DNA from: Cytophagales bacterium
Lineage (GTDB): Bacteria > Bacteroidota > Bacteroidia > Cytophagales > Cyclobacteriaceae
Length of the DNA: 39,639 bases
Assembly: GCA_022360055.1 (NCBI GenBank)
Contig: JAKSDO010000109.1
Span: 1-39,639 of the forward strand
Reading direction: 5' to 3'
The notes below the pieces were generated by a model. That model was given only the letters and a program-made list of their open reading frames with translations. It was not told the origin of the DNA and ran no database searches. Below are positions 6,875 through 19,978 of the stretch, one piece after another. The translations under genes were made by a program, and so were the position numbers. Every line of letters starts with the position of its first letter. Within the stretch, counting starts at the first letter, position 1.

Positions 6875-8500
6875 TTAATTGTCTAATTGATGGTTAAAAG
6901 TAGGAATAAATTCCGGAGGTTTCCTATGTTTTGTCGCCTGTTCATAAGCATAAGCGATACTTATTAATTTCGGTTCGCTGAATGCTTCGGCGAAAAAAGA
7001 AATTCCCACAGGCAAACCGTGAACAAATCCCATGGGCACGGTGATATTGGGATAACCCGATCGTGCGGCAGGAGAGGAACTGCCGCCCACATAATGATCT
7101 CCATTGATAACATCTATCGGCCAGGCCGGGGTTCCGGTCGGTGCGATGATTGCATCTATATCATATTTATCCAACACCCGGTCAATTCCTTCACGACCGT
7201 TGGACCTTAAAACATTTTTCAGGGCTTTTTTGTATCTGCCGGAATTGAGGTTGCCCTTTTTCTGGGCTTCGATCAATATTTCCTGACCAAAGAAGGGCAT
7301 CTCGGCACTTGAGTGATCTTTGTTGAATTTTATCAATTCTTGCAGGGATCGAACCTTAATCGGGGCGGCGCAATCTTCGAAATATTTGTTTAAGTCATGT
7401 TTAAACTCATATAACAAAACCTCATAGGCATTGTCCGAGCTTGTCCCGTTTAATTCTTCCCGGTCCAATTCGACGATGATCGCGCCCAGGTCTTGCAGGT
7501 CTTTTACGGCCTGTGTGACCAGCAGATCAACTTCGCTGTGAAAACCGGAGAATTGTCTGGCGACGCCAAGTCTTTTTCCTGACAGGGCCTCTTTGTTTAG
7601 AAACCGGGTGTAATCGGCGTAAAATTTACTTTCACTTCTTTTTGTATAAGGGTCTTTCGGATCAATGCCGGTCAGGGCCCCAAGGATGATGGCAGCATCC
7701 TCAACCGTTCGGCTCATAGGTCCTGACGTATCGTGACTGTGGGCGATCGGTACAATTCCCGCCCTGCTCACCAAGCCGACTGTTGGTTTAAGTCCGACGA
7801 TGCCGTTTGCCGAAGCAGGACATACAATTGATCCGTTGGTTTCGGTTCCGATAGCGGCAAGGCACAAATTTGCCGACACGGCCACGCCCGACCCGGAACT
7901 CGAACCGCATGGATTCCTGTCGGTAATATAGGGATTCCTTGTTTGACCTCCTCTGCCGCTCCAGCCGCTGCTCGATCTGACCGATCTGAAATTGGCCCAC
8001 TCGCTTAAGTTTGTCTTTGCAATTATTAATGCTCCGGCATCCTCGAGCTTTTGAGCGACCCATGCGTTTTTTACAGCTAAATTTCCCTCCAGGGCCAATG
8101 AGCCTGCTGTAGTCATCATATTTCCGGCCGTATCGATGTTGTCCTTCAGCATGATCGGTATCCCGTGCAACGGACCTTTTAACTTTCCTTCTTTTCTTAG
8201 ATCATCCAATTTTGCGGCAACACGCCGTACATCCGGATTTATTTCGATTACTGCATTTAACGAAGGGCCATTCTTATCAATCTCCCGGATGCGGTTCAGG
8301 TAAAGTCGCGCAACTTCCCTGCAGGACAAGCTCCCGTTTTTGTAAGCACCCAGAACATCCGAAATCGTTCTTTCATTTAAGACAAAGTCAATATAGTTCT
8401 CTGCGCTTACTTTTTTCTGAGGGGCATCGGATCGACATGCATGTACACTTAAAATAGCACCGGAAGCAATGCCGTTTTTAAGAAAGGACCTTCTTTTCAT
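6875..8500 (-). CDS. Exported amidase of the amidase-signature family
   Basis: This 541-residue protein begins MKRRSFLKNG, a twin-arginine-like motif, and has a lipobox-like VHAC with Cys22, suggesting Tat export and possible lipidation. The amidase-signature catalytic triad is recognisable: Lys in 'HGIPIMLKDNIDTAG', the cis-Ser in 'NPCGSSSGSGVAVSA' and the nucleophile Ser in 'IGTETNGSIVCPAS'. It hydrolyses an amide bond; exported relatives include peptide amidases and enzymes acting on C-terminal amides. Its ATG lies directly after an 89-bp repeated leader (8501-8589), which itself holds a 27-codon reading frame. The GNAT gene follows 16 bp downstream. Confidence 0.9.
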   Translation of the reverse strand: MKRRSFLKNGIASGAILSVHACRSDAPQKKVSAENYIDFVLNERTISDVLGAYKNGSLSCREVARLYLNRIREIDKNGPSLNAVIEINPDVRRVAAKLDDLRKEGKLKGPLHGIPIMLKDNIDTAGNMMTTAGSLALEGNLAVKNAWVAQKLEDAGALIIAKTNLSEWANFRSVRSSSGWSGRGGQTRNPYITDRNPCGSSSGSGVAVSANLCLAAIGTETNGSIVCPASANGIVGLKPTVGLVSRAGIVPIAHSHDTSGPMSRTVEDAAIILGALTGIDPKDPYTKRSESKFYADYTRFLNKEALSGKRLGVARQFSGFHSEVDLLVTQAVKDLQDLGAIIVELDREELNGTSSDNAYEVLLYEFKHDLNKYFEDCAAPIKVRSLQELIKFNKDHSSAEMPFFGQEILIEAQKKGNLNSGRYKKALKNVLRSNGREGIDRVLDKYDIDAIIAPTGTPAWPIDVINGDHYVGGSSSPAARSGYPNITVPMGFVHGLPVGISFFAEAFSEPKLISIAYAYEQATKHRKPPEFIPTFNHQLDN

Positions 8501-8589
8501 CTGTTTTATTTTTTTAAGTTGCTGACAAACAGGGCAATATAATCATGCTTATGTGTGTTCCGAATTTGCTCCGGTCCCACCGGTTTCAT
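8501..8589 (-). repeat. 89-bp leader element, copy D (before amidase)
   Basis: On the minus strand this copy runs from an ATG at 8589 up to the base before the amidase ATG at 8500. It aligns without large gaps to copies at 16921, 18569 and 18657: conserved ATGAAACCGGT, ACCGGAGCAAATTCG, GCATGATTATATTGC and GTCAGCAAC followed by an A-rich tail. The hairpin CCGGT-GGG-ACCGG keeps the stem seen in the other copies but changes the loop. Unlike the others, this copy has no TGA at codon 5, so it reads as 27 codons ending TAA at 8506, five bases before the amidase start. Confidence 0.85.
8506..8589 (-). CDS. Possible 27-residue leader peptide before the amidase
   Basis: The frame starts with ATG at 8589 and ends TAA at 8508-8506, encoding MKPVGPEQIRNTHKHD followed by YIALFVSNLKK. 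Against copy C (18657) several differences fall at synonymous sites (CAC/CAT, GCG/GCC, AAT/AAC, CTA/TTA), which hints that the family descends from coding DNA. Translation is not shown by anything else in the sequence; no ribosome site is evident. It could instead be a chance open frame in a non-coding element. Confidence 0.3.
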   Translation of the reverse strand: MKPVGPEQIRNTHKHDYIALFVSNLKK

Positions 8590-8595
8590 TTTTAA

Positions 8596-8624
8596 TTTCT
8601 TTGAAAGTACACCATTCAAAGAAA
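8596..8624. repeat. Perfect 10-bp inverted repeat, possible terminator
   Basis: TTTCTTTGAA and TTCAAAGAAA form a perfect 10-bp stem around a 9-nt loop. It lies 84 bp beyond the stop of the minus-strand VOC gene and 7 bp before copy D of the leader repeat. It may terminate transcription coming from the VOC gene, or be an operator for the amidase transcript. The stem is A/T rich and lacks a clean T-tract on the minus strand. Confidence 0.45.
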
Positions 8625-8707
8625 CAAAAATTTAGTCAATTGTGTAAAACAGACGATGAAACTTCATGGCCCGGGATGCATGTATAGCGCATAGCCCAAG
8701 CATAAAA

Positions 8708-9097
8708 CTATTCCATGATCTCTACCTTATTGCCATCGGGATCAAGAACGACACTTTCATAGTAACCGTCGCCGGTTACCCGCGGTTCGCCGATGACTTT
8801 ATACCCGTCCGACCGGAGCTGCTCTGTTAAATGATCGACCTTTGATCGGTCTCCTGTCGATATGGCAAAGTGTGTAATCCCCAGGTAATTTTCAACATCA
8901 TCGTGCAGCTTGGCGTCTACTTCCAGCTTCTCCATCAACTCCAACCGTGTACCGGAATCAAACTCCACAAAATACGATTCAAAATTCTTCCGGGGATTCA
9001 AGTATTTTTCACCGGCTTTACCCCCAAAATAATATTCGTAGAAACGCTTCATTTTTTCCAGATGCTGGGTCCAGATAGCGATATGATCGATTCTCAT
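8708..9097 (-). CDS. VOC-family (glyoxalase-like) protein
   Basis: This 129-residue protein is a single vicinal-oxygen-chelate unit pair: 'MRIDHIAIWTQHLEKMKRFYEYYFGG' at the N-terminus, 'LGITHFAISTGDRSKVDHLTEQL' at the repeat, and 'YESVVLDPDGNKVEIME' at the C-terminus. His4/5 region, the mid His and the C-terminal Glu are in the places of the metal ligands of glyoxalase I-type proteins. The frame extends upstream to 9196, but the ATG at 9097 starts exactly at the fold's first strand, and the longer form would overlap the epimerase gene, so 9097 is chosen. It is last in a probable minus-strand operon behind the epimerase. The substrate is unknown. Confidence 0.87.
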   Translation of the reverse strand: MRIDHIAIWTQHLEKMKRFYEYYFGGKAGEKYLNPRKNFESYFVEFDSGTRLELMEKLEVDAKLHDDVENYLGITHFAISTGDRSKVDHLTEQLRSDGYKVIGEPRVTGDGYYESVVLDPDGNKVEIME

Positions 9098-9165
9098 AGC
9101 AAATTTGTTTACATATATTTCGTAAGTGAAAATTAATAAAAACAGATGAAAAAGCAGACACCGGG

Positions 9166-10131
9166 CTACTTCAGGGAATAATGCTCTTTTGCCCATGCGA
9201 GCGTTTTGGCAATGCCTGTGGAATAATCGGTCGATGGTATCGGGCCAATCACGTTATTGAATTTCTGCCCGCTGAGAATCAGTTTCTCCCTTTTGAGATA
9301 AAGCATTTCTACCAATTCCTTTACCACGGGATTAAATAATCCGAAGATCTTAAAAAAGAGATCGGAATTGACCGTGCCGAATTTGCTGCGGACGCCGGAC
9401 GCGTCGACAATTTCCTGTAAAAACTTTCTCGATGAGGTGATCCCCTGACCCGGAACGTTGAACACTTCACCGTTGCTCTGGTCATTCAAAGCCGCCATAA
9501 CCATGCTTTCGCCGGCATCTTCGATATAGATCATTTCCAATTCCACATCCAGGTTGCCCACCCAGCGCAGGATCTTGCCTTTGATGGCATTGATAAATAG
9601 TTGCTCGGAAAACCCATTGATCACATAAGGCCCGTAAAAGTCCGGCATGCGGATTATCGTATAATCCAGGCCTTCATCTTTGCGGGCCAAAGCCAGCATC
9701 TCTTCCATTTCCATCCGGATTTGCCCCTTTTTGGTATGGGCAGCATGAGGGTGTTTTTCATCCACAGGATTGTACCTGGCATGTCCGTACACATATACAT
9801 TTCCGGGGAAAACCAATTTGATTTTATGCCCGACCGCGGCATCTACGCAATTTTTGAGCAATCGCAATGCTTTCGCCTCCCATTGATGATATGGCATATT
9901 TATGCAATAGTGCACAATATCCGCTTCTTCAAAGGTTTTTTTTAAGTCCCCGGGATTTGCAGCATCCCCTTCAACGATATGGAGGTTTTTCAAGCCATTC
10001 GCATATTTTTCGGCTTTTTTACGGTCGCGCACCAGGACTTTGATTGAGATGTCTCTCTTGCTCAGGGCGTGGGCAACGGCTCTTCCGATACCTCCGGTAA
10101 ATCCAAGGATCAAATGCGTTTGATTTTTCAT
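9166..10131 (-). CDS. NAD(P)-dependent epimerase/dehydratase-like protein (extended SDR)
   Basis: This 321-residue protein has an N-terminal Rossmann nucleotide-binding loop (GFTGGIGRAV), the acidic-strand region 'VEGDAANPGDL', and later 'VFPGNVYVYG', 'TIIRMPDFYGPYV' and 'YIEDAGESM', which are blocks of NAD-dependent epimerases and related reductases. The usual YxxxK is not obvious: the Tyr of 'YVYGHARY' lacks a Lys four residues on, so catalysis may be atypical or purely binding. It begins 10 bp after the aminotransferase stop, so it is probably part of one transcript with the sulfotransferase-like and aminotransferase genes. Confidence 0.85.
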   Translation of the reverse strand: MKNQTHLILGFTGGIGRAVAHALSKRDISIKVLVRDRKKAEKYANGLKNLHIVEGDAANPGDLKKTFEEADIVHYCINMPYHQWEAKALRLLKNCVDAAVGHKIKLVFPGNVYVYGHARYNPVDEKHPHAAHTKKGQIRMEMEEMLALARKDEGLDYTIIRMPDFYGPYVINGFSEQLFINAIKGKILRWVGNLDVELEMIYIEDAGESMVMAALNDQSNGEVFNVPGQGITSSRKFLQEIVDASGVRSKFGTVNSDLFFKIFGLFNPVVKELVEMLYLKREKLILSGQKFNNVIGPIPSTDYSTGIAKTLAWAKEHYSLK

Positions 10132-10141
10132 AGGAAGTTTC

Positions 10142-11044
10142 TTAGGGTAATTTCTCGCAATACTTGGGAATTATCTTTTGAAATGAATTCCGCAATTTTT
10201 CGGTTATGTTTGTATCAGAGTTGTTTTCGATTCTTCTTCCGTCAATTTCATATAACGGTGTAAGCTCTCCCATGGTTCCACAAGCGAAAACTTCATCGGC
10301 ATTGTAAAATTCTGTCAATGAAAGGTTTCTTTCAGTCCATGGTATTCCCAAATCTCCGGCCAACTCGATCACAAGCTGTCTTGTAATGCCATGAAGGCAA
10401 TTATCGGCATAGGGAGTAAACATTTGGCCATCTTTGATCAGGAAAAGGTTCGTGTCGTTTAACTCGGAAACAAATCCGCGTTCATCCAGCATAATGGCCG
10501 CATCAGCGCCGGCCGCATTGGCCTGTATTTTGGCAATTATATTATTGAGGAGGTTGTTGTGGTGGATTTTTGAATCCAGGAATTGAGGGCTATTCCTTCT
10601 TTGGGATGAAGTAATAACCTTTATCCCGGATTGGTTGTCATAAACCGGAGGTTTCCATTCGGCCAGCACGATAAGGCACGATCCTTTTTGATTTAAGCGG
10701 GGATCCATTCCCGAGGTTATTTTTTCTCCTCTGGTAAGCGTCAGACGAATATGGGTCTCATCGCGCATTCCATTTGCCGCTAAAGTATCGAAGATTGCCT
10801 TTTTAATTTCATCTTTTGAAGGAATATGTGAAAATGCCAGGGCTTTAGCGGATTCGTGAAGCCGATTCAGATGTCTGTCAAGACAAAGTATTCCCCCCTC
10901 ATATACCCGTAAACCTTCCCATACGGCGTCGCCGCCTTGTACCACACTGTCGAATACGGAAACCTTGGCATCTTTTCTTGACAACAGCACTCCATTTACA
11001 TGTACCAGGATGTCGGCATTTTTCGGATTGTATTGTTGTAGCAT
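10142..11044 (-). CDS. Class IV (BCAT/D-alanine-type) aminotransferase
   Basis: This 300-residue PLP enzyme has fold-type IV features: 'SVFDSVVQGGDAVWEGLRVYEG' (the family's first block), 'RHLNRLHESAKAL', Lys159 in 'LDSKIHHNNLLNNI' (aligned with the PLP Lys of IlvE), 'FVSELNDTNLFLIKDG' with the carboxylate that contacts PLP, and 'HGITRQLVIELA'. It transfers an amino group, probably between an amino acid and 2-oxoglutarate. IlvE is possible, but the non-canonical SKIHHNN and the neighbours argue for a specialised substrate. Its ATG directly follows the stop codon of the sulfotransferase-like gene with no intervening base, so translation is probably coupled. Confidence 0.9.
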   Translation of the reverse strand: MLQQYNPKNADILVHVNGVLLSRKDAKVSVFDSVVQGGDAVWEGLRVYEGGILCLDRHLNRLHESAKALAFSHIPSKDEIKKAIFDTLAANGMRDETHIRLTLTRGEKITSGMDPRLNQKGSCLIVLAEWKPPVYDNQSGIKVITSSQRRNSPQFLDSKIHHNNLLNNIIAKIQANAAGADAAIMLDERGFVSELNDTNLFLIKDGQMFTPYADNCLHGITRQLVIELAGDLGIPWTERNLSLTEFYNADEVFACGTMGELTPLYEIDGRRIENNSDTNITEKLRNSFQKIIPKYCEKLP

Positions 11045-11761
11045 TTAGTTGTACTTGATAGAAACTTTGAACAATTCATTGTAGTATTTGGCAGCTTCCG
11101 TGCAGACAGATTCCAGGGCAGCGGGAACCACTACCTCTTTTGGTTCCGATTTAATGAAACCGGTGGATTTATGCAAATTATGGTACCAGTATTCCGCCCA
11201 TATACCGTCTTCTTTTCTGGGACCTGCGGGCCAGGTCAGCATTTTGACATCGAACGAAATACCGATATGCCCACATAGTTTTTTGAGCATTAACTCAGGA
11301 TCCTTGAGAAGCTCTCCGCTGTCGATTACCGCAGGAATTACCTCGGCTTCCTTCAGCTCCCGGTACAATTCCCAGCTTTTCCTGATGCCAATGTCATCCA
11401 ACGACGGATCTTTAATAACCTTAGAGAATGAAACCAGCAGTTCGGCAGGATTTCTAATTAAGAATACATTTTTTGAAGCAAGCAGGAATTTCTTATCCAC
11501 ATTTATATGGTGATGGGCCATATTTTTAACAAAAATTATCCGGTCTTTGTGATTTTGATCCAACAGTTCATTTGTGATCCGGCCGATATCTGTCGATAAA
11601 GAATTCATGATCCTTTTTCTTCCGGGATGAATGACTCCGGTCAATTTCAAATAGTAACCGTAAAAAGGCTCGTCTTTTACGGTAGTATCGCTGCGTTGAG
11701 CGAAAGCATACATCAGTGCGGTAGACACATTTCTCGGTCCTGAAATCAGATTAATAATCAT
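11045..11761 (-). CDS. Sulfotransferase-like P-loop protein
   Basis: This 238-residue protein begins 'INLISGPRNVSTALMYAF', a form of the 5'-phosphosulfate-binding loop (normally xPRSGTT), and has 'FLIRNPAELLVSFSK', matching the 3'-phosphate-binding block with R, N-P and a following S. 'IIFVKNMAHHH' precedes it. The family transfers sulfate from PAPS, but members without a canonical loop may act on other ligands. It is the first gene of a minus-strand unit, abutting the aminotransferase. I recall plant BCAT-like proteins that fuse a similar P-loop domain to a class IV aminotransferase, which makes this adjacency look functional rather than random. Confidence 0.8.
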   Translation of the reverse strand: MIINLISGPRNVSTALMYAFAQRSDTTVKDEPFYGYYLKLTGVIHPGRKRIMNSLSTDIGRITNELLDQNHKDRIIFVKNMAHHHINVDKKFLLASKNVFLIRNPAELLVSFSKVIKDPSLDDIGIRKSWELYRELKEAEVIPAVIDSGELLKDPELMLKKLCGHIGISFDVKMLTWPAGPRKEDGIWAEYWYHNLHKSTGFIKSEPKEVVVPAALESVCTEAAKYYNELFKVSIKYN

Positions 11762-11932
11762 TGAAAGATCAAATATTGTTCATGGGCTGAATACAAGATT
11801 CCGTAAAATTATATCAATGCGCAAATAATTATTTGAACGGCGTGATTTTTTTCAACGAAAAACTTAGTTTTAGGCAAATAAATTTCTCCTAATATCGTTT
11901 AACGTGAATACTACCAGACTTCCTGTTTGATC

Positions 11933-13213
11933 ATGAAAAAGAAAATCATCATTTTTATTTCTATTGCCGCAGTTTTACTCCTGGCATTTGCTTTACAGAA
12001 AATTAACAATAAATCGTCGGACAGTTCCGAAATTTATACCGAGGTAAGCAAAGGGTTGTTTAAAATCGAGGTCACCGCTTCCGGGGAGCTTGATGCGAAA
12101 AACTCTGTTGAGATTATGGGACCCGACGGTCTTAGGACTGCACAGATCTGGCAGGTGAAAGTCGACCATATTGTCGAAGAAGGTACCGTGGTAGAAAAAG
12201 GGGGCTACATTGCGCGGTTGGATCAATCCGAATTGGGAGATAAAATACAGAAAAAGCAAACTGACCTTCAGCAAACGATGTCGCAATTTACGCAGGCCAA
12301 GCTCGATACCGCGCTGGAATTGCGAAAAGCCCGCGATGAACTGATCAATCAGAAGTACGACATCGAAGAAAAGGAAATTATTTTGCAACAGTCCCAGTTT
12401 GAACCTCCGGCCGAAATAAAGAAAGCCGAAATTAATGTGGAAAAGGCGCGCAGAACCTACAATCAATCGCAGGAAAATTATCGCTTACAAAAGGAGAAGG
12501 CCCTTGCAGAGGTTGAAGAGGCTGCAGCCAAAATGATGAATGATAAAAATCAATTGACTTTTTTGCAGGGGCTGGCTCAGAAATTTACTGTTACAGCGCC
12601 GGAACCGGGCATGGTCATTTACAGAAGGAACTGGCGGGGACAAAAGCAGGGCGTCGGTTCCACATTATCACCTTGGGATCCTGTGGTTGCCAAATTGCCT
12701 GATTTGAGTAAAATGGTCTCCAAGACATACATCAATGAAGTGGATATTAATACGGTGAAAATCGACCAAAAAGTTGAAATTGGTTTGGATGCGTTCCCGG
12801 AAAAAAAACTGACCGGAAAGGTCATTGAGGTAGCCAATGTCGGAGAACAAAAGCCGAATTCCGATGCCAAAGTATTTCAGCTTCTCATTGAAATTAATGA
12901 ATCGGACACTACGCTGCGGCCCGGTATGACTACGAGTAATACAATTATATCGGGAGAGATCGAAGACGTATTGTTCGTGCCTGTCGAAGCGCTTCATTCC
13001 CAGGGGGATTCGATCTCTTATGTGTACAAAAAGGAAGGGATCGGAATATCCAAACAGGAGGTATTTTTGGGACAATCCAATTCCGATGAAGTCATCATAC
13101 TCAAAGGTTTGGAAGAGCATGATGTTGTATATCTGTCTGATCCTGATGGCGTGACGGACAAGAAAATAAACCGTTTGGAAGGTTCTCCCGATCAATTGGC
13201 CGCTCAAAATTAA
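11933..13213 (+). CDS. HlyD/MacA-type membrane-fusion (periplasmic adaptor) protein
   Basis: This 426-residue protein has an N-terminal membrane anchor (residues about 4-21), a split lipoyl/barrel-sandwich domain ('VEEGTVVEKGGYIARLD' and 'FTVTAPEPGMVIYR'), a long Gln/Glu/Lys-rich alpha-helical hairpin between them (about 95-210), and a beta-barrel with 'LTGKVIEVANVG' and 'LRPGMTTSNTII'. This is the order of RND/ABC-type adaptors such as MacA. It bridges an inner-membrane exporter and an outer-membrane channel. The ATG at 11933 is used; an in-frame TTG two codons upstream is less likely. It is followed 4 bp later by a MacB-type permease, so they form one unit. Confidence 0.92.
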   Translation: MKKKIIIFISIAAVLLLAFALQKINNKSSDSSEIYTEVSKGLFKIEVTASGELDAKNSVEIMGPDGLRTAQIWQVKVDHIVEEGTVVEKGGYIARLDQSELGDKIQKKQTDLQQTMSQFTQAKLDTALELRKARDELINQKYDIEEKEIILQQSQFEPPAEIKKAEINVEKARRTYNQSQENYRLQKEKALAEVEEAAAKMMNDKNQLTFLQGLAQKFTVTAPEPGMVIYRRNWRGQKQGVGSTLSPWDPVVAKLPDLSKMVSKTYINEVDINTVKIDQKVEIGLDAFPEKKLTGKVIEVANVGEQKPNSDAKVFQLLIEINESDTTLRPGMTTSNTIISGEIEDVLFVPVEALHSQGDSISYVYKKEGIGISKQEVFLGQSNSDEVIILKGLEEHDVVYLSDPDGVTDKKINRLEGSPDQLAAQN

Positions 13214-13217
13214 GATC

Positions 13218-14546
13218 ATGTATCAAAGAATTCTGGCAAACTTCAGCATTGCACTTGAGGCCGTGCTCGCCAACAAACTGCGATCATTACTCACGGGGCT
13301 GGGAATAATATTTGGTGTAGCCGCCGTAATTTCCATGATGGCTATCGGGTCCGGGGCACAGGAAGAAATACTGGAGCAGATTCGCCTGGTAGGGGTAAAT
13401 AATATTGTAATTACTCCTATCGTGGAACAGGAAGAATCCGAACTTGGTGAAGGAGAAAGCGAAGAAGGCGAGGAGAAAAACCTGTCTTCCGGATTAACGA
13501 TCCTGGATACCCGCAGCATCGAAAAAACAATACCTGGTGTTAAAAGTGTATCTCCCGAAATAATTATTGACACATATATCATAAAAAATGCGCGAAGAAG
13601 GTCGGCAAAATTGGTTGGAGTGGAGAATAAGTATTTTGACCTTTCCGGTTTTCGATTGGATCAGGGAAAATATTTTAATAAAGATCATCTGGAATATGGA
13701 AAGCCTGTTTGCGTAATTGGCAAAAGTATAAAGTCAAAGTTTTTCAGCAAGGAAGATCCGATCGGAAAGAAAATCAAAGTCGGAAGTCACTGGTTAAAGG
13801 TAATCGGAGTTTTGGAAGAACGACACATTTCCAAAAAGAGCATCTCAAATCTGGGTATCAGAGATTATAATATGGATGTGTATGCGCCGCTTCAAACTGT
13901 GCTGATAAGGTATGAAAACCGTGCTTTGGTCACCGAGGCCAGGATAAAATTGTATAATCGTTCGAACCCTGAAGAGCGGGAGAAATTCCCGAATTATCAC
14001 CAGTTGGATCGTTTGGTAGTTCAGGTGGCGGAAACGAACCGGCTAAACGGAGTCGCACAGGTAATTTCAAAGCTTCTTAAGCGAAGGCATAATGGCATTG
14101 TCGATTATGAAATCACAATTCCGGAGCTGTTGCTCAAACAACAGCAGCGCACAAAAAGTATTTTCAATTTTGTACTTGGCGCTATCGCCGGCATATCCTT
14201 GCTGGTGGGTGGTATCGGAATCATGAATATTATGCTGGCGTCGGTGCTTGAACGAATCAAGGAAATAGGCCTGAGGATGTCGATCGGTGCAAAAAAAGCT
14301 GACATAGCTTACCAGTTTTTGCTGGAAGCAGTGATGATCTCCGTTACGGGCGGACTGGCAGGGGTAATCCTGGGAAGCGCCATAGCCATCGGAGTATCCG
14401 AAGTGGCGGACATCCCGACTATTCTGAGTTTTGGTTCCATTATTCTTTCATTCGGTGTGGCAGTCTCCGTAGGGGTTGTTTTTGGTTATACGCCGGCTAA
14501 ACGGGCCGCCAATCAGGATCCGATCACTTCCTTGAGGTATGAGTGA
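13218..14546 (+). CDS. MacB-type ABC transporter permease
   Basis: This 442-residue protein has the four-helix MacB/FtsX topology: a first helix ('SLLTGLGIIFGVAAVISMM'), a large periplasmic MacB-PCD domain (about 45-285), and three C-terminal helices beginning 'FVLGAIAGISLLVGGIGIMN' followed by 'EIGLRMSIGAKKADI', the FtsX signature. No ATP-binding domain is fused to it, and no ATPase gene lies in the unit. The periplasmic domain contains an unusual Glu/Gly/Ser-rich stretch at about residues 71-90. Together with the adaptor it should form part of a tripartite export or lipoprotein-extraction machine. Confidence 0.92.
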   Translation: MYQRILANFSIALEAVLANKLRSLLTGLGIIFGVAAVISMMAIGSGAQEEILEQIRLVGVNNIVITPIVEQEESELGEGESEEGEEKNLSSGLTILDTRSIEKTIPGVKSVSPEIIIDTYIIKNARRRSAKLVGVENKYFDLSGFRLDQGKYFNKDHLEYGKPVCVIGKSIKSKFFSKEDPIGKKIKVGSHWLKVIGVLEERHISKKSISNLGIRDYNMDVYAPLQTVLIRYENRALVTEARIKLYNRSNPEEREKFPNYHQLDRLVVQVAETNRLNGVAQVISKLLKRRHNGIVDYEITIPELLLKQQQRTKSIFNFVLGAIAGISLLVGGIGIMNIMLASVLERIKEIGLRMSIGAKKADIAYQFLLEAVMISVTGGLAGVILGSAIAIGVSEVADIPTILSFGSIILSFGVAVSVGVVFGYTPAKRAANQDPITSLRYE

Positions 14547-14640
14547 CGGTTGCCCTGCGGTTTTAGACATCCGTATTATATCTTTCCGGAATTTCCCGCG
14601 AATTATCGACCGGAATAGATTACTTTTTCGATGGTTGAGT

Positions 14641-15216
14641 ATGAAGCGGTATCATGGAATTTTTCTTTGCGCATTCTTACTCACAGGCATCAGCAACGGG
14701 CAATCGAATTTGTCCGACGCCGCCATTTCCGTGATCAATCGAAACATCGTCTATGATCCGGCATATTTCTCGATCGGCTACCCGAATGGGGATGTGCCGG
14801 CAGACCGGGGGGTGTGTACCGATGTGGTGGTCCGGGCCTACCGAAAGCTGGGAATCGATTTGCAGGAAGAGGTTCATAACGATATGAAGGCCAATTTTGA
14901 ATCTTATCCCGGGAATTGGGGTTTGAAAAGCACGGACAAAAACATTGATCACAGGCGGGTTCCAAATCTCATGACATTCTTTTCAAGGAAAGGAAGCGAA
15001 AAACCGATAAGCAGCAACCCGGCGGATTATGTGCCGGGGGATCTTGTTTGCTGGGATTTGGGGAGCGGCCTCACACACATTGGAATTGTTGTGGATAGAA
15101 GGTCCCCGGACAGACAGCGTTTTTTAATCGTTCACAATATTGGCCGGGGTCAGATAGCAGAGGACATCTTATTCAATTTTAAGATTATAGGACATTATAA
15201 ATATCCGGCAAACTGA
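14641..15216 (+). CDS. DUF1287 protein, exported NlpC/P60-like candidate hydrolase
   Basis: This 191-residue protein has a Sec signal peptide ending near Gly20, then a DUF1287 domain: 'VYDPAYFSIGYPNGDVPADR', 'GVCTDVVVRAYRKLGIDLQ', 'NIDHRRVPNL', 'YVPGDLVCWDLGSGLTHIGIVVD' and 'HNIGRG'. Cys59 and the His of THIG occupy the positions expected for a papain-like/NlpC-P60 Cys-His pair, suggesting amide hydrolysis in the periplasm, possibly on peptidoglycan peptides, but the activity is unproven for the family. The frame is open back to 14539, overlapping the permease; the ATG at 14641 starts at the signal peptide and is preferred. Confidence 0.87.
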   Translation: MKRYHGIFLCAFLLTGISNGQSNLSDAAISVINRNIVYDPAYFSIGYPNGDVPADRGVCTDVVVRAYRKLGIDLQEEVHNDMKANFESYPGNWGLKSTDKNIDHRRVPNLMTFFSRKGSEKPISSNPADYVPGDLVCWDLGSGLTHIGIVVDRRSPDRQRFLIVHNIGRGQIAEDILFNFKIIGHYKYPAN

Positions 15217-15342
15217 CCATCGAACCCGTGTCTGTTCAAATTTGGATTTATAAAGATTTAAACCCGAATTGAATTGACACTTTAATCTCATTTTGTGAAC
15301 TTTAATCCGTATTTAAATCTTCAGAATATTTAAGATAAGATC

Positions 15343-16836
15343 ATGGCTGATTTGCACAAAACAACTCAATCCCGGCGACAATTTATAAAAACCGGTTCTG
15401 CGCTGGCGGCCGGTTTAGCTCTAGCGCCCCAGATAAAGTGCTCGACAAACAAAGTGACAGAACTCATGAGGCGTCCGTTTGGTAAAACAGGACGAGATGT
15501 AACCACCTTCGGTCTGGGTGGTCAGGCCTCGATACAGTGGACGCCAACCGATGTCGATCCTGTAAACATAATTTTAAAGACATTCGATCAGGGCGTAAAT
15601 TATTTTGATACTTCCAACCTGTATGGACCCAGCCAGCTTAATTTTGGAAAAGCGTTCAAAGAATTGTCGTTGATCCCAGGGCGAGCCGGATACGATGAGC
15701 CACTGCGCCGGTCTGTTTTTTTAACATCCAAAACGCATCTAAGATGGGCGAAAGGAGGAGAAGATCGCGATGGAGTACGAAACCGGACCAACGGGGTTCC
15801 GGGTTCATTTACCGTGGATGATCTGAAGAGGAGTTTGTCTCAGATCTTTGGAGACGGAGCCGGGAATTATCCGAAAGGGGCGTATTTGGACATGATGTTA
15901 ATTCACAATCTTAACACGCACGCGGAGGTCGATGCCCTATATACCGGTTATGGCAATCCCGATCCAGGTGATGAATCGATAGGTGCGCTGGCGGCTTTGC
16001 TGGATTATCGCGATGGCACCAACAATACCGGGTTGAATCCGAATGAAGAAAAACTCATAAATCATATTGGATTTAGCGGGCACTACTCTGCCGCGGTCAT
16101 GATGGATATGATTCAAAGGGACTACAACAATATACTTGACGCCATGTTGGTGGCTGTAAATGCCAACGACAAGCTCAACTTTAATATGCAAAACAACGTG
16201 ATCCCCGTAGCGAAGGCCAAGAATATGGGCATCATCGCGATGAAGGTATTTGCCGATGGGGCAATGTACACCAAGCCGGCAGGATGGTCGAATGAGCCAA
16301 GGCATGTTGTTCGGGGGGTGGGCAGTAAGAAATTACCTAGTCGTCCTTTGATCGAATATTCCCTGAGTACTCCCGGAATTAGCACGGCAATTATCGGCAT
16401 TGGAGAAATCAATGATGATCCGACCAGATGTCAACTTGCTCAGAACATATCTTCAGCCCAGATCGGAACGGAGGGTCTGTCTGAGGTTGACCGCGCCGAT
16501 ATCGAAAAACTTGCACTTCATGCTAAAGAAGGTAAAACGAATTACTTCCAGGTGCATGAAGGCGGTCTGACAAGTGTACATGATCTCAGTGCACTCAGAG
16601 CGGATGATGCCATAAACCTTACCTGGAATTCCGCATTTGCCGGAAATGATCCGCTTAAAATCTATGAGATTTTCCGAGATGATAAATTGGTGGGCAAAAT
16701 AGATCACAAGCCGCAAACGTCTAAAAAGCCTTTTGCATATGTGGATAAAATAACCCGGGAAGTCAAGCCCGTTTATAAGGTAGTTGCAATTGACGATAAA
16801 GGGAATCGTATGGAGTCTGTAGAAGTTTCGGCCTGA
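15343..16836 (+). CDS. Tat-exported aldo/keto reductase with C-terminal FN3-like extension
   Basis: This 497-residue protein begins with a twin-arginine signal (SRRQFIKTGSALAAGLAL) and so is probably exported folded with its NADP(H). The AKR barrel shows 'RRPFGKTGRDVTTFGLGG', catalytic Asp and Tyr in 'NYFDTSNLYG', Lys in 'FLTSKTHL' and His in 'MMLIHNL', i.e. the D-Y-K-H tetrad. After about residue 410 the chain leaves the barrel and has 'INLTWNSAF...YEIFRDDKLVGKI...YVDK...YKVVAIDDKGN', the pattern of a fibronectin type III domain. The barrel is longer than usual because of inserts around 115-150. It stands alone with 126 bp upstream. Confidence 0.88.
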   Translation: MADLHKTTQSRRQFIKTGSALAAGLALAPQIKCSTNKVTELMRRPFGKTGRDVTTFGLGGQASIQWTPTDVDPVNIILKTFDQGVNYFDTSNLYGPSQLNFGKAFKELSLIPGRAGYDEPLRRSVFLTSKTHLRWAKGGEDRDGVRNRTNGVPGSFTVDDLKRSLSQIFGDGAGNYPKGAYLDMMLIHNLNTHAEVDALYTGYGNPDPGDESIGALAALLDYRDGTNNTGLNPNEEKLINHIGFSGHYSAAVMMDMIQRDYNNILDAMLVAVNANDKLNFNMQNNVIPVAKAKNMGIIAMKVFADGAMYTKPAGWSNEPRHVVRGVGSKKLPSRPLIEYSLSTPGISTAIIGIGEINDDPTRCQLAQNISSAQIGTEGLSEVDRADIEKLALHAKEGKTNYFQVHEGGLTSVHDLSALRADDAINLTWNSAFAGNDPLKIYEIFRDDKLVGKIDHKPQTSKKPFAYVDKITREVKPVYKVVAIDDKGNRMESVEVSA

Positions 16837-16852
16837 CCGGCTGTCATTGATT

Positions 16853-16884
16853 GACAATTATGCGCGTACCGGTAATCAATTGTC
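16853..16884 (+). terminator. Possible terminator hairpin after the aldo/keto reductase
   Basis: GACAATT and AATTGTC can pair (7 bp) around an 18-nt loop that begins 17 bp after the reductase stop codon. There is no following T-run, so the call is weak. Confidence 0.25.
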
Positions 16885-16920
16885 TGTACGATATAAAAAG
16901 CCTTATGAATAGAAAACGAA

Positions 16921-17009
16921 ATGAAACCGGTATGACCGAAGCAAATTCGGGACACATATGAGCATGATTTATTTCTCTGTGCGTCAGCAACTTAGAAAAA
17001 TATAAACGG
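16921..17009 (+). repeat. 89-bp leader element, copy A (before small membrane protein)
   Basis: This copy shares most bases with copies B, C and D: ATGAAACCGGTATGACCG, AGCAAATTCGGGACACATAT, GAGCATGATTTATT and GTGCGTCAGCAAC, then an A-rich tail ending ATAAACGG. The CCGGT-ATG-ACCG hairpin has one mismatch at its base. Codon 5 of the ATG-initiated frame is TGA, and one base is missing relative to copies C and D after GATTTATT. It is followed directly by ATGAATG and, 8 nt later, by the start of the 57-residue glycine-rich protein. Confidence 0.85.
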
Positions 17010-17017
17010 ATGAATGT

Positions 17018-17191
17018 ATGCAATTTCATGGTGAATATTTTGGAATGGCAATTGCTCTTGGGATAGGGGTAGGCGTATCTTTGGGCGTCGTCCTGAATAG
17101 CCTGGCGATGGGCATAGCGCTTGGAGGCGGCTTGGGCACCACCCTTGGAATAATCCTGGCTACTCAGTTAAAAGGTAGAAAAAAGCAATGA
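17018..17191 (+). CDS. Small glycine-rich membrane protein (57 aa)
   Basis: ATG at 17018 opens a 57-residue frame ending TGA at 17191. After MQFHGEYFG the protein is nearly all Gly, Ala, Ile, Leu and Val in a repeating G-x-G or G-xxx-G pattern ('GIGVGVSLGVV', 'ALGGGLGTTLGI') and ends with a basic tail (QLKGRKKQ). This predicts one hairpin or two short membrane helices of glycine-zipper type with a cytoplasmic positive end. Small proteins of this composition recur in bacteria without known function. It sits right behind leader copy A. An alternative ATG at 17010 gives only a short unrelated frame. Confidence 0.7.
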   Translation: MQFHGEYFGMAIALGIGVGVSLGVVLNSLAMGIALGGGLGTTLGIILATQLKGRKKQ

Positions 17192-17371
17192 AATCCGGGT
17201 TTTTAGCACTCAGTTTGAGAAGATACCCATTCCCCGGTTTGTTTTTAATCTTTTGAATTTCATTCGGGGCTGCTTGACATCAATCTGTCAAACTGCAACA
17301 TCCGAATGGAGAATATGCATTTTCACTGAGCGCGGATGAAAAGCTCCAATGTTATGTTCCATGGCAATCGA

Positions 17372-18397
17372 TCAGTCAAGGCGACAGACTTCGATGCGAT
17401 AAGCCTTTGCCGGGTTTTTCATTAACAACTGATCAATATCATTATCTGAAAATCCATTTTCTTTAAGGCGCGGGATCAACTGATCGAAAATAGCCGAATA
17501 CGGACTGCCGTATCTTTTGAAGCCGATGTCCCCATTTTCCGTTTGAACTACCGACCAATAGGCATCCTGAGAAATTAAGGTTTTGTTGATCAGATTTTTC
17601 TTTTTCAGGACAAGTAAAAAATTTAAATATTTCTCCTGGGACGAGGGCGTAGCATTGATGCCATCCAGGCTAATCCAGGCGCCGGTTTTTGCAATTTGGA
17701 TTTGTTCTTCGATAGACATATTTTGAGCATGTACAACGATCAAAGCGTCGGGAGCAACGCCCACTGTGCGCAATATCTCTACTTCGTCCCTGGCTGCCAT
17801 AAAACTTCCGGTGTGAATGGCGATTTTCAATCCGGTTTTCAAATGCGTCATTGCTCCTGCCCTTACAATCTTCTGTTCGATGGAATCGAGGCGATCCCTA
17901 CCTACTCCAAGCTTAATAAACCCAGGTTTAATGCCGGTTTCGTCTATTCCGTTCTCCCACTCATCGATCCATTTTTCAGCCAGTTTTTCAGCGGCATTGT
18001 CGTAAGCATGCGCCGGCAGGAATTTTTTGCCAGCGGCCGCGTAATAGCCGGTGTTTGTAAGAATATTCAATCCGGATTGTTCGGATATTGCCCTGAGAAG
18101 CCGGACATCCCGGCCAATAAATTTGGGGGTGCAATCAATAAGGGTTTCAACTCCTTTGGATTTTAGCCGGACAAAATAGGGGAGAAGAGAATCCAGGGCA
18201 TCGTTTAAATGGTACTGCGGCTGAGATACCTTTTCAGCTCCGATAAAATCCACCACCACATGTTCGTGCTCCAGCGTGATTCCCATGGAAACAGTTTCAA
18301 TGGTTCCATTTACCGTCATTATTTTGTAAATACCTCCTTTATCCGGAGAATTACATGATAGTATGATAAACAAGGGAACAGATAAAACCCACTTCAT
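17372..18397 (-). CDS. Phosphotriesterase-family lipoprotein
   Basis: This 341-residue protein has a lipoprotein signal with lipobox ILSC (Cys15). The rest is a phosphotriesterase-like TIM barrel of the amidohydrolase superfamily: 'GITLEHEHVVVDF' gives the HxH (His44, His46), 'GFIKLGVG' the bridging Lys, 'KIAIHTGSF' and 'IVVHAQNM' the two His ligands, and 'TLISQDAYW' the Asp. All metal ligands therefore appear intact. Family members hydrolyse lactones, esters or phosphotriesters; the substrate is unknown. It is on the minus strand between leader copies A and B/C, which face the other way. Confidence 0.9.
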   Translation of the reverse strand: MKWVLSVPLFIILSCNSPDKGGIYKIMTVNGTIETVSMGITLEHEHVVVDFIGAEKVSQPQYHLNDALDSLLPYFVRLKSKGVETLIDCTPKFIGRDVRLLRAISEQSGLNILTNTGYYAAAGKKFLPAHAYDNAAEKLAEKWIDEWENGIDETGIKPGFIKLGVGRDRLDSIEQKIVRAGAMTHLKTGLKIAIHTGSFMAARDEVEILRTVGVAPDALIVVHAQNMSIEEQIQIAKTGAWISLDGINATPSSQEKYLNFLLVLKKKNLINKTLISQDAYWSVVQTENGDIGFKRYGSPYSAIFDQLIPRLKENGFSDNDIDQLLMKNPAKAYRIEVCRLD

Positions 18398-18568
18398 AAT
18401 GTCCTAAATGTTTCGAAAAAAGGATAGCGCTAAATTAAATTTATAAACTTAGATTTGGGTGATTTTTAGCAATTATATTAAAGGTTGTATTGAAAACAGC
18501 ATAAAAATGTGCCATTGAGCCGATGGCGGGTTGACAGAAGACTGATTGTTTGATGATCTCATAGCGAT
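18398..18568. other. Intergenic region upstream of PTE-like gene and leader repeats
   Basis: This region holds the divergent upstream regions of the phosphotriesterase-like gene (minus) and of the tandem leader copies (plus). It is A+T rich near 18430-18480, where minus-strand TAAATTTA and TAAGTTTA each differ by one base from the -7 consensus. No reading frame is supported. Confidence 0.4.
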
Positions 18569-18656
18569 ATGAAACCGGTATGACCGGAGCAAATTCGGGA
18601 CACATATGAGCATGATTTATTCCTCTGTGCGTCAGCAACCTATTAAAAATAAACGG
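18569..18656 (+). repeat. 89-bp leader element, copy B (tandem with C)
   Basis: This 88-bp copy is almost identical to copy A in its first 70 bases (CCGGAGCAAATTCGGGACAC rather than CCGAAG...). Its hairpin CCGGT-ATG-ACCGG is perfect. The second stem pairs GACAC.TA with TGTGCGTC imperfectly. It is joined head to tail with copy C without spacer, so its downstream ATG is the first codon of copy C. Confidence 0.85.
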
Positions 18657-18745
18657 ATGAAACCGGTATGACCGGAGCAAATTCGAGACGCACACGGGTG
18701 TGATTATATTGCGCTGTGTGTCAGCAATCTATTAAATATAAACGT
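18657..18745 (+). repeat. 89-bp leader element, copy C (before PLP decarboxylase)
   Basis: This copy is more diverged in the middle (GAGACGCACACGGGTGTGAT, then TATATTGCGCTGTG, which matches copy D better than A or B). The second stem is almost complete here: GACGCACA with TGTGTGTC, 8 pairs including one G-T. The unit ends at 18745, the base before the decarboxylase ATG. Codon 5 is TGA, as in A and B. Confidence 0.85.
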
Positions 18746-19978
18746 ATGAAGTATTGGAAGAAATTAAGCGAAAATGAGTTGCGCGAAAGAGTAGCCGATG
18801 CATTGGATAGAAATGTTGACTATAGAAATAAGACCATTCTGGGGGTGCCGGCTTCCCATCTGGATGAAAAAGTCTTTTATGGAAACGCATCATTTTTAAA
18901 AGATGCCCCTTTTCTTTCAACGATGATCCACAATCCAAATCATATCGGCTGTCACACACTAGGTGAATCCGAAAGTTTTTTCGCCGGCACTCAGAAAATT
19001 GAGAAGGAGTTGATTGCTCTGGTGGCCGAGGACATATTAAAAGGCGAGACGGATGGTCAGGACGGTTATGTCGCTTCCGGTGGAACAGAGGCAAATATTC
19101 AAGCCATCTGGATCTACCGCAATTACTTTGTAAAAGCACATGGAGCAACGATGGATGAGATTTGCATCATCGGCTCGGAAGATTGCCACTACTCCCTGGA
19201 TAAGGCGGCAAATCTTCTGAATCTTCAGTTTTACAAATCAAAAGTAAATCATCTCGATCGAACGGTTTCCCCCGCAAACTTCGAGCGGACTGTCGACGAT
19301 GCAATATCAAATGGAATAAAATACGTCATAGGCGTAGCCAATATGATGACCACTATGTTTGGCTCGGTAGATGATATTGAAATGATGACGGACTTGCTTT
19401 CCGGTAAAAACCTCGAATACAAGATCCATGTCGACGGCGCCTACGGCGGATTTGTGTATCCGTTCAGTTGCAAACAAAGTAAGCTTGATTTTTCAAATCC
19501 CAATGTGGGCTCTATCACACTCGACGCACATAAAATGGTTCAGGCCCCGTTTGGAACCGGAATTTTTCTGGCAAAAAAAGGATTCATGCGGTATGTTTAT
19601 ACGGAAGAGGCGCAATACGTCCAGGGACTCGACGCAACGTTGATCGGAAGCAGGTCGGGAGCCAATGCAATTGCCGTATGGATGATATTGATGTCGTACG
19701 GCCCTCACGGGTGGTTTGAAAAGATTCATATTCTCCAATACCGCACAGATTGGTTATGCAACCGGTTAAAAGAGAAGGGAATATCCTACTTCCGCCAACC
19801 TTACTCCAACCAGGTAGCGATTGAAAGTCGATTTCTTACCAAGGAAATAGTGGAAAAATACGGATTAGTTCCCGACACGCACACCAATACGCCATCCTGG
19901 TATAAAATTGTGGTCATGGAACATGTAACCGTGGATGTGCTTGCGCCATTTATTGAGGAGATTCTAACTCGGGTTTAA
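18746..19978 (+). CDS. PLP-dependent group II (glutamate/aromatic/histidine-type) decarboxylase
   Basis: This 410-residue protein has the group II decarboxylase plan: 'YVASGGTEANIQAIW' (phosphate-binding block), 'CHYSLDKAANLL' (the His that stacks on PLP), 'HVDGAYGGFVYP' (the Asp that salt-bridges the pyridine nitrogen) and 'ITLDAHKMVQAPFGTGIF' with the Schiff-base Lys. It removes CO2 from an amino acid, producing an amine; the substrate (Glu, Asp, Tyr, His or other) cannot be assigned. The frame is open to 18716 inside leader copy C, but the ATG at 18746 just after the repeat is the natural start. The preceding tandem leader copies may regulate it. Confidence 0.88.
   Translation: MKYWKKLSENELRERVADALDRNVDYRNKTILGVPASHLDEKVFYGNASFLKDAPFLSTMIHNPNHIGCHTLGESESFFAGTQKIEKELIALVAEDILKGETDGQDGYVASGGTEANIQAIWIYRNYFVKAHGATMDEICIIGSEDCHYSLDKAANLLNLQFYKSKVNHLDRTVSPANFERTVDDAISNGIKYVIGVANMMTTMFGSVDDIEMMTDLLSGKNLEYKIHVDGAYGGFVYPFSCKQSKLDFSNPNVGSITLDAHKMVQAPFGTGIFLAKKGFMRYVYTEEAQYVQGLDATLIGSRSGANAIAVWMILMSYGPHGWFEKIHILQYRTDWLCNRLKEKGISYFRQPYSNQVAIESRFLTKEIVEKYGLVPDTHTNTPSWYKIVVMEHVTVDVLAPFIEEILTRV

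What the first reader, a model, noticed from the sequence alone, without database searches (positions are those of the whole stretch)
8501..18745. Four-copy ~89-bp leader element placed directly before unrelated genes
Seen directly: copies at 8501-8589 (minus), 16921-17009, 18569-18656 and 18657-18745 (plus). Each starts ATGAAACCGGT and runs to an A-rich tail. Two end at the base before an ATG of a real gene (exported amidase, PLP decarboxylase), a third lies 8 nt before a small membrane protein, and the fourth is tandem with the third plus-strand copy. A CCGGT-N3-ACCGG hairpin is kept while its loop varies (ATG or GGG), and a second stem (GACGCACA with TGTGTGTC in copy C) is partly kept. Inference: a mobile or duplicated structured 5'-UTR that would put unrelated genes under one control, perhaps with the first hairpin as a binding site. 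No known riboswitch or Bacteroidota leader that I can name matches it.
Basis: partly seen in the sequence, partly recalled or inferred. Interest (0 to 1): 0.78.

Follow-up and report, generated by a model that had tools for sequence, protein, structure and literature searches.

The report
Mobile repeat inserting at start codons
A roughly 90-letter mobile DNA element, present in over 200 copies in this bacterium's genome, sits mostly at the start codons of unrelated genes and appears to give each gene a new, more open translation start instead of breaking it.

Summary
The four copies are real and belong to a large family. The genome (7.55 Mb; same-genus relatives are Cyclobacteriaceae MAGs) has 220 matches to the left end, plus a related second family. 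In 1.90 Mb examined, 194 elements form 141 arrays; 95 of 139 scorable arrays end at the ATG/GTG of a coding-like ORF, one of them (L167) being on inspection an in-frame insertion inside a gene. In a blind 392 kb, 9 of 51 gene-start ATGAAA sites are filled against 2 of 103 other non-coding ones by one rule, 5 of 36 against 4 of 116 by a stricter one. Four orthologous empty sites place insertion at the ATG. Divergent versions in other genera, and in another family of the order, are also mostly at gene starts. Hairpin 1 covaries; hairpin 2 does not; the frame is not selected. Predicted folding closes the old start and opens the new one. I read it as a non-autonomous mobile element that targets ATGAAA start codons and brings a replacement translation start. 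Shared regulation is not shown. The enzyme that moves it was not found.

The parts
8501..8589 (-). Element copy A (family F1, 89 nt), ends at the base before the amidase ATG
8571..8583 (-). Hairpin 1 of copy A, CCGGT-GGG-ACCGG
   Evidence: sequence; covariation of this hairpin in the family
6875..8500 (-). Host gene of copy A: exported amidase (PF01425), start ATGAAAAG
   Evidence: the G003 ortholog starts with the same ATGAAAAG and shows no element in the 160 nt upstream
16921..17009 (+). Element copy B (F1, 89 nt), followed at once by ATGAATG
16927..16939 (+). Hairpin 1 of copy B, CCGGT-ATG-ACCGA (outermost pair broken)
17018..17191 (+). 57-aa ORF after copy B, marginal coding score, no Pfam hit
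18569..18656 (+). Element copy C1 (F1, 88 nt), first of a tandem pair
18575..18587 (+). Hairpin 1 of copy C1, CCGGT-ATG-ACCGG
18657..18745 (+). Element copy C2 (F1, 89 nt), ends at the base before the PLP decarboxylase ATG
18663..18675 (+). Hairpin 1 of copy C2, CCGGT-ATG-ACCGG
18746..19978 (+). Host gene of C2: PLP-dependent decarboxylase (PF00282), start ATGAAG

Best explanation
A short (usually 88-91 nt), non-autonomous mobile element targets the sequence ATGAAA, preferentially where it is a gene's start codon. The element carries ATGAAA at its own left end and inserts directly 5' of the target, giving [ATGAAA-hairpin-...-TATAAACRG]-ATGAAA-gene, so the gene keeps its full coding sequence and ATG. 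Inferred step: in the mRNA, the hairpin that starts directly after the first ATGAAA closes the old start, while the A-rich, little-paired 3' end presents the gene's ATG as a new, more open initiation site. Insertion is therefore tolerated at start codons, which lets the family reach hundreds of copies, stack in tandem and turn over between species. Shown: copy number, placement, enrichment over other non-coding ATGAAA sites, empty sites, hairpin-1 covariation. Inferred: the effect on translation. Unknown: the enzyme that moves it.
For: Copy number: 220 matches to the left end in the genome, 0 for the reversed pattern; 194 elements in 1.90 Mb. Placement: 95 of 139 arrays end at the ATG/GTG of an ORF of 60 aa or more with coding score over 8. 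My stricter genome-wide caller puts a gene start exactly there in 53 of the 95, inside the array in 12, left of it in 3, right of it in 1, and calls no gene in 26. Enrichment with one rule for filled and unfilled ATGAAA sites: blind 392 kb, 9 of 51 starts against 2 of 103 other non-coding sites (p 9e-4); stricter caller 5 of 36 against 4 of 116 (p 0.035). Target: +6 is A in 97% of filled starts against 52% of element-free ATGAA starts. Left flanks are A-rich at -12/-11 like native leaders (61/56% against 53/46%). Empty sites: L061/L124, L213/L102, L070/L156, L251/L143; in the last a TA-ATG stop/start overlap is preserved. In 7 of 8 filled starts whose right flank is not ATGAAA, the left end still is (the window copy's left end). 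Hairpin 1: 16 compensatory cells against a shuffle maximum of 11 and C-G to A-U between families. Opening cost medians: old ATG 8.8, gene ATG 3.9, flanks joined 6.0, element-free ATGAAA starts 5.8 kcal/mol; 74 of 95 loci scored. Initiation in Flavobacterium is tuned by structure and upstream adenines (PMC6847099, abstract and passages).
Against: 44 of 139 arrays are not at such an ORF start; 8 of these have no start codon at their end. At least one array (L167) lies in frame inside a gene. With the stricter caller the enrichment is modest. The 16 compensatory cells are all at one pair, the loop-closing one, in related copies, and that pair is broken in some copies (7 C-A of 72; 6 of 38). Arrays away from gene starts also show 50% A at -13. 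At -3 the element has C in 94%, not the favoured A. No mobilising enzyme and no expression data. The gene caller is my own script.
Confidence: 0.66

Rival explanations
1. An ordinary short repeat that inserts at any ATGAAA; start codons stand out only because insertions elsewhere are removed by selection.
For: Almost no array lies inside a gene although some 2400 unfilled coding ATGAAA sites exist in the same 1.9 Mb; 33 arrays are plainly intergenic. With the stricter caller the bias against other non-coding sites is only 4.5-fold in the blind stretch and 3-fold in all.
Against: Non-coding ATGAAA sites away from starts are also filled less often (2 of 103 against 9 of 51), which selection against broken genes alone does not predict.
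Confidence: 0.33
2. A mobile cis-regulatory leader kept because it puts many genes under one signal.
For: Covarying hairpin 1; a core near ACACANGRRCATGATTA recurs across most families seen; two orthologs are filled in both of two species.
Against: 20 sampled host proteins are mixed; 4 of 6 orthologs compared are empty in the other species; families differ between genera in hairpin and middle; the second stem is not kept.
Confidence: 0.2
3. A coding module: a 30-codon in-frame N-terminal extension, internal insertion or leader peptide.
For: The 90-nt consensus is open and in frame with the gene; 42 of 123 F1 elements with both ATGs would fuse. In L167 a 90-nt copy lies in frame between an N-terminal FecR/STN-like part and an outer-membrane barrel domain.
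Against: Among 72 ungapped copies: synonymous changes 166 (expected 166.5), nonsense 57 (expected 34.5), so no coding constraint. 81 of 123 do not read through.
Confidence: 0.04
4. A translational-bypass element: ribosomes hop from the first ATGAAA over the hairpin to the second.
For: Identical ATGAAA on both sides with a hairpin directly after the first, which resembles bypass elements (recalled; one search gave search listings only).
Against: The landing site is itself a start codon in an open, A-rich context, so hopping is not needed.
Confidence: 0.03

Closest known systems
REP / BIME elements mobilised by TnpA-REP (RAYT)
   Same: Short, hairpin-bearing, over 100 copies per genome, non-coding, genome-specific families, clustered copies.
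   Different: About 90 nt rather than 21-65 nt; no GTAG/GTGG tag before the hairpin; not beside the Y1 genes examined (34 of 46 hits); mostly at start codons rather than anywhere between genes.
MITEs (for example MITEAba12 and the Porphyromonas MITEs; search listing and start of abstract only)
   Same: Short non-autonomous mobile DNA.
   Different: No terminal inverted repeats seen by eye; no full target duplication; fixed orientation to the target; start-codon target.
IS200/IS605-derived ends
   Same: Subterminal left hairpin, fixed orientation, short defined target.
   Different: There the target flanks the left end; here the left ATGAAA is constant and the right side varies. No covarying right hairpin.
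Rickettsia palindromic elements (recalled)
   Same: Short repeats tolerated in or at protein-coding genes; L167 is one in-frame case here.
   Different: Those lie in frame inside genes (recalled); this family lies mostly before the ATG and shows no coding constraint.

Membership tests
REP / RAYT (REPtron) | GTAG or GTGG guide tetranucleotide 0-2 nt 5' of the hairpin (definition from passages of PMC6006769) | tested here: not met
   In the 38 aligned elements the hairpin is preceded by ATGAAA or, in three rows, a single-base variant of it. The same paper describes Bacteroidetes Y1 genes with 'atypical' structures, so an unusual relative is not excluded
REP / RAYT (REPtron) | Cognate Y1 transposase gene flanked by copies | tested here: not met
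   34 of 46 Y1 hits examined with up to 1.5 kb flanks: 4 own with the F1 model, 30 of 42 in nine other genomes with two end motifs: no element. The carrier G015 has no Y1 hit. 12 hits were not examined
REP / RAYT (REPtron) | Size 21-65 nt | tested here: not met
   87-91 nt in 143 of the 148 F1 and F2 elements with both ATGs
MITE | Terminal inverted repeats | tested here: not met
   By eye only: left ATGAAACCGG, right end read backwards CYGTTTATA; no repeat tool was run
MITE | Target-site duplication | tested here: not met
   In 7 of 8 filled starts whose right flank is not ATGAAA the left end is still ATGAAA; a shorter ATG or ATGA duplication cannot be excluded
IS200/IS605-derived element | Hairpins at both ends | tested here: inconclusive
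   Left hairpin covaries at its loop-closing pair; the right hairpin of F1 does not exceed shuffles
Known riboswitch or cis-regulatory RNA | Match to an Rfam family | tested here: not met
   No hit at gathering in the window or in 8 loci of other genomes; two weak hits at E 1-2.5
Protein-coding repeat (RPE-like) | Constraint on the reading frame | tested here: not met
   one in-frame internal copy exists (L167)

The most novel reading that the evidence does not exclude
A new class of mobile element of the Cytophagales that recognises translation start sites as its target and carries a portable initiation region, so that insertion replaces the host gene's start instead of disrupting it, moved by a mechanism not yet described (perhaps one that sees mRNA or the open start region).
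Probability: 0.33. Interest if true: 0.9.

Novelty: new variant of a known kind. Interest (0 to 1): 0.75.

Why it matters
A mobile element that uses start codons as a safe haven would show how selfish DNA can pass 200 copies in a gene-dense genome. In the blind stretch it sits at between 5 of 36 and 9 of 51 of the gene starts that read ATGAAA, so it could rewire translation genome-wide and mislead start-site annotation. It also offers natural before/after pairs for testing what sets initiation strength in bacteria that do without Shine-Dalgarno pairing.

Tried and rejected
Rejected or unsupported: coding element; RNA known to Rfam; carriage on plasmids or phages (no match to the window copies in two collections; no exact match to one left-end pattern in viral contigs); Y1 transposase as driver in the usual flanked arrangement. 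A pairing of the core GATTATAAT with the A-rich 3' end is only suggestive across families (293 of 5000 permutations as good) and absent within F1. Hairpin 2 of F1 folds well but its changes are no better paired than shuffles.

Corrected on re-check: the first enrichment figure (9 of 37 against 2 of 107) mixed a loose rule for filled with a strict rule for unfilled sites; one search uses one rule for both and gives weaker values, which I report instead. One search found no array with both flanks in one gene, but it tested only the 44 arrays not scored as gene starts; searches then showed that L167 lies inside a gene.

Dropped rows: the L332 matches (49% identity, one filled and one empty) as probable paralogs; matches of 33-37% identity. 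One search aligned the wrong coordinates and is unused. The G059 match did not show the left motif and is unconfirmed. Literature: search listings in an open-access library showed no paper describing a repeat placed at start codons in this group; subscription journals were not searched.
Full report
WHAT IS THERE. The four copies exist as described, above chance for their first 11 bases alone. Copy A abuts the ATG of an amidase and C2 that of a PLP decarboxylase. Copy B is followed at once by an ATG that opens only 18 codons; the 57-aa ORF 8 nt further on is marginal.

IT IS A HIGH-COPY FAMILY. The genome that holds the window (7.55 Mb, 300 contigs) has 184 or 220 matches to the 29-nt left end with up to 3 mismatches, depending on the last base of the pattern, and none for the reversed control. 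I call this family F1. A second family, F2, has the same layout with another hairpin (CAGGC-CAT-GCCTG instead of CCGGY-NNN-RCCGG); 22 copies match its left end, an undercount because my pattern was three bases off. In 1.90 Mb fetched (mostly chosen because they hold copies, except 392 kb taken blindly from C203 and C130) nhmmer finds 160 F1 and 34 F2 elements in 141 arrays: 97 single, 35 double, 9 triple, F1 and F2 in either order. In the blind stretch the F1 score gap is sharp: 16 hits there and the 4 in the window have E of 5e-21 or better, the next hit E = 1. Of the 194 hits, 12 miss an end of the model.

PLACEMENT. Genes were called with my own codon-usage script. Of 139 arrays not at a contig or stretch edge, 95 end at the start codon of an ORF of 60 aa or more with coding score over 8; 90 of those starts are ATGAA. 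The other 44: 33 intergenic, 6 with the left flank in the 3' end of a gene, 5 with the right flank in a gene that does not start there; 8 of the 44 have no start codon at their end. The 95 has errors both ways. An array before yidD was scored 'short' although Pfam confirms YidD. L167, counted as a start, is on inspection a 90-nt copy lying in frame inside a gene, between a FecR/STN-like N-terminal part (below Pfam's cut-offs) and an outer-membrane barrel domain. The stricter genome-wide caller puts a start exactly at the array end in 53 of the 95, inside the array (in-frame upstream ATG) in 12, left of it in 3, right of it in 1, and calls no gene in 26. Ten of the 95 have a same-strand gene in the left flank.

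ENRICHMENT. Counting filled and unfilled ATGAAA sites by one rule: in the blind 392 kb, 9 of 51 gene-start sites are filled against 2 of 103 other non-coding sites (odds ratio 10.8, p 9e-4); with the strict caller 5 of 36 against 4 of 116 (4.5, p 0.035). In all 1.90 Mb, which is enriched for copies, 87 of 329 against 24 of 554 (7.9), or strictly 46 of 225 against 50 of 643 (3.0). Of the blind stretch's 13 arrays, 11 are at gene starts by the loose rule. The sixth base of filled starts is A in 97%, against 52% of element-free ATGAA starts, so the target is ATGAAA. Left of the gene-start arrays A reaches 61/56% at -12/-11, as in native leaders (53/46%); arrays elsewhere have 32/27% there, though 50% at -13.

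HOW IT INSERTED. Relatives' filled genes were compared with the held part of the window's genome. Of 43 filled relatives' genes, six had one convincing ortholog (58-87% identity): four are empty in the window's genome (L061/L124, L213/L102, L070/L156, L251/L143) and two are filled in both (L069/L106, L316/L076; in the second pair the array abutting the gene is of another family). L332 gave two 49% matches, one filled and one empty, and was dropped. In L251/L143 the flank is shared right up to the ATG; in L061/L124 the distance from shared sequence to ATG is equal but the last stretch has diverged; L213/L102 is colinear with a 2-nt difference; in L070/L156 only the end of the upstream gene is shared. 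L251/L143 sits on a TA-ATG overlap of stop and start, and the element's first A keeps the upstream stop. In the window's own genome three arrays (L108, L191, L177) lie where the upstream gene's stop overlaps the left ATGA. The amidase ortholog of copy A in G003 starts at the same ATGAAAAG with no element in 160 nt, but its leader is not alignable by eye. Where the right flank is not ATGAAA (8 of 95), the left end still is in 7, the eighth hit being truncated, which suggests that the left ATGAAA belongs to the element.

STRUCTURE AND CODING. Hairpin 1 (5 bp, 3-nt loop, directly after ATGAAA) shows 16 compensatory cells in 72 ungapped F1 copies, shuffle mean 5.9 and maximum 11; all lie at the loop-closing pair (T-A to C-G) in related copies, and 7 copies have an unpaired C-A there. 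Between families another pair changes C-G to A-U (6 of 38 rows). Hairpin 2 folds well in the F1 consensus but its variation is no better paired than shuffles, and no second stem appears in the consensus of three families. The frame from the left ATG is not constrained: synonymous 166 observed, 166.5 expected; nonsense 57 against 34.5. Of 123 F1 elements with both ATGs, 42 read in frame into the gene, 17 stop within 3 nt of its ATG, 36 stop 4-24 nt before it and 28 stop earlier.

PROPOSED FUNCTION. Opening the 30 nt around the start costs a median of 8.8 kcal/mol at the old ATG, 3.9 at the gene's ATG after the element, 6.0 at the in-silico joined empty site and 5.8 at 167 element-free ATGAAA starts. 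The gene's ATG is easier to open than the old one at 66 of 74 loci and than the joined site at 57 of 74 (21 of the 95 arrays lacked flank or an intact left ATGAAA). In Flavobacterium initiation is tuned by structure near the start and by adenines at -3, -6, -12 and -13 (PMC6847099, abstract and passages). The element's 3' end is A-rich but has C at -3, so it is a good though not ideal site. This is a prediction, not a measurement.

DISTRIBUTION. In the genus the covariance model R1 finds 150 matches in the window's genome (all 150 candidates scored, so a floor), 33 in G001, 17 in G003, 16 in G005, 4 in G004 and none in G002 or G006. In 148 genomes of the family, 8 match at E 0.01, from 6 genera of 84; the weakest, G059, is unconfirmed. 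In 390 genomes of the order, 4 match at E 0.001: the window's own, G436, G461 and G250; G250 is in another family and has seven copies, six at gene starts. In 395 genomes drawn from the phylum only the window's own matches. Large runs use stricter filters, so these are lower bounds. Most copies inspected in other genomes abut an ORF or another module, but I counted no fraction. The families seen share ATGAAA at the left, mostly a core near ACACANGRRCATGATTA, and TATAAACAG or similar before ATGAAA. Named carriers are two Cyclobacteriaceae MAGs (WGED01, DAOVVI01) and one Bacteroidia MAG (JAUHYU01), whose contig lengths equal those of G004, G005 and G001; the window's own record is not named. Twenty host proteins, drawn at random from those of 100-700 aa, have mixed Pfam families (19 with a hit) and no transposase among them.

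DRIVER. None identified. Y1 transposases occur in carriers and in the two non-carriers alike, the carrier G015 has none, and the 34 of 46 Y1 hits examined are not flanked by the element. Two of the four in the window's genome have palindromes of their own.

VERDICT. A real, mobile repeat family with a preference for ATGAAA start codons. Translation replacement is the best-supported function but untested. Common regulation of the host genes is not supported beyond location.

Noticed in passing
L167:9940-10029 (minus): A 90-nt F1 copy lying in frame inside a gene, adding 30 residues between a FecR/STN-like part and an outer-membrane barrel domain; the only internal insertion I recognised.
   Followed up: partly
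L225 (G015, another genus), about 1501-1695: An F1-like element scoring 94.6 bits, close to the window's own copies, followed by a module of a quite different family (G107 type). Possible horizontal transfer.
   Followed up: partly
L096 and L097 (window's genome): Y1 transposase genes flanked by their own palindromes (GTCTTAGCG...CGCTAAGAC; CTGTCGGATA type), apparently separate REP families.
   Followed up: partly
L194 (G000) and L305 (G250): yidD genes (PF01809 in both) in two different families of the order both have elements at their start codons.
   Followed up: partly
L136:5811-5928, L190 minus strand, L191:4505-4546: Rearranged copies: an internal duplication, an F1/F2 chimera, and a roughly 40-nt short form that still ends at an ATGAAA.
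   Followed up: no
L202, L214, L219, L251 (G003) and L222 (G005): Versions whose first hairpin is enlarged by an inserted GC-rich palindrome while the ends stay intact.
   Followed up: no
window 11154-11164: Isolated exact ATGAAACCGGT that is not an element.
   Followed up: no
element core and 3' end, several families: The core GATTATAAT could pair with ATTATAAAC near the gene's ATG; family-level support is weak (293 of 5000 permutations).
   Followed up: partly
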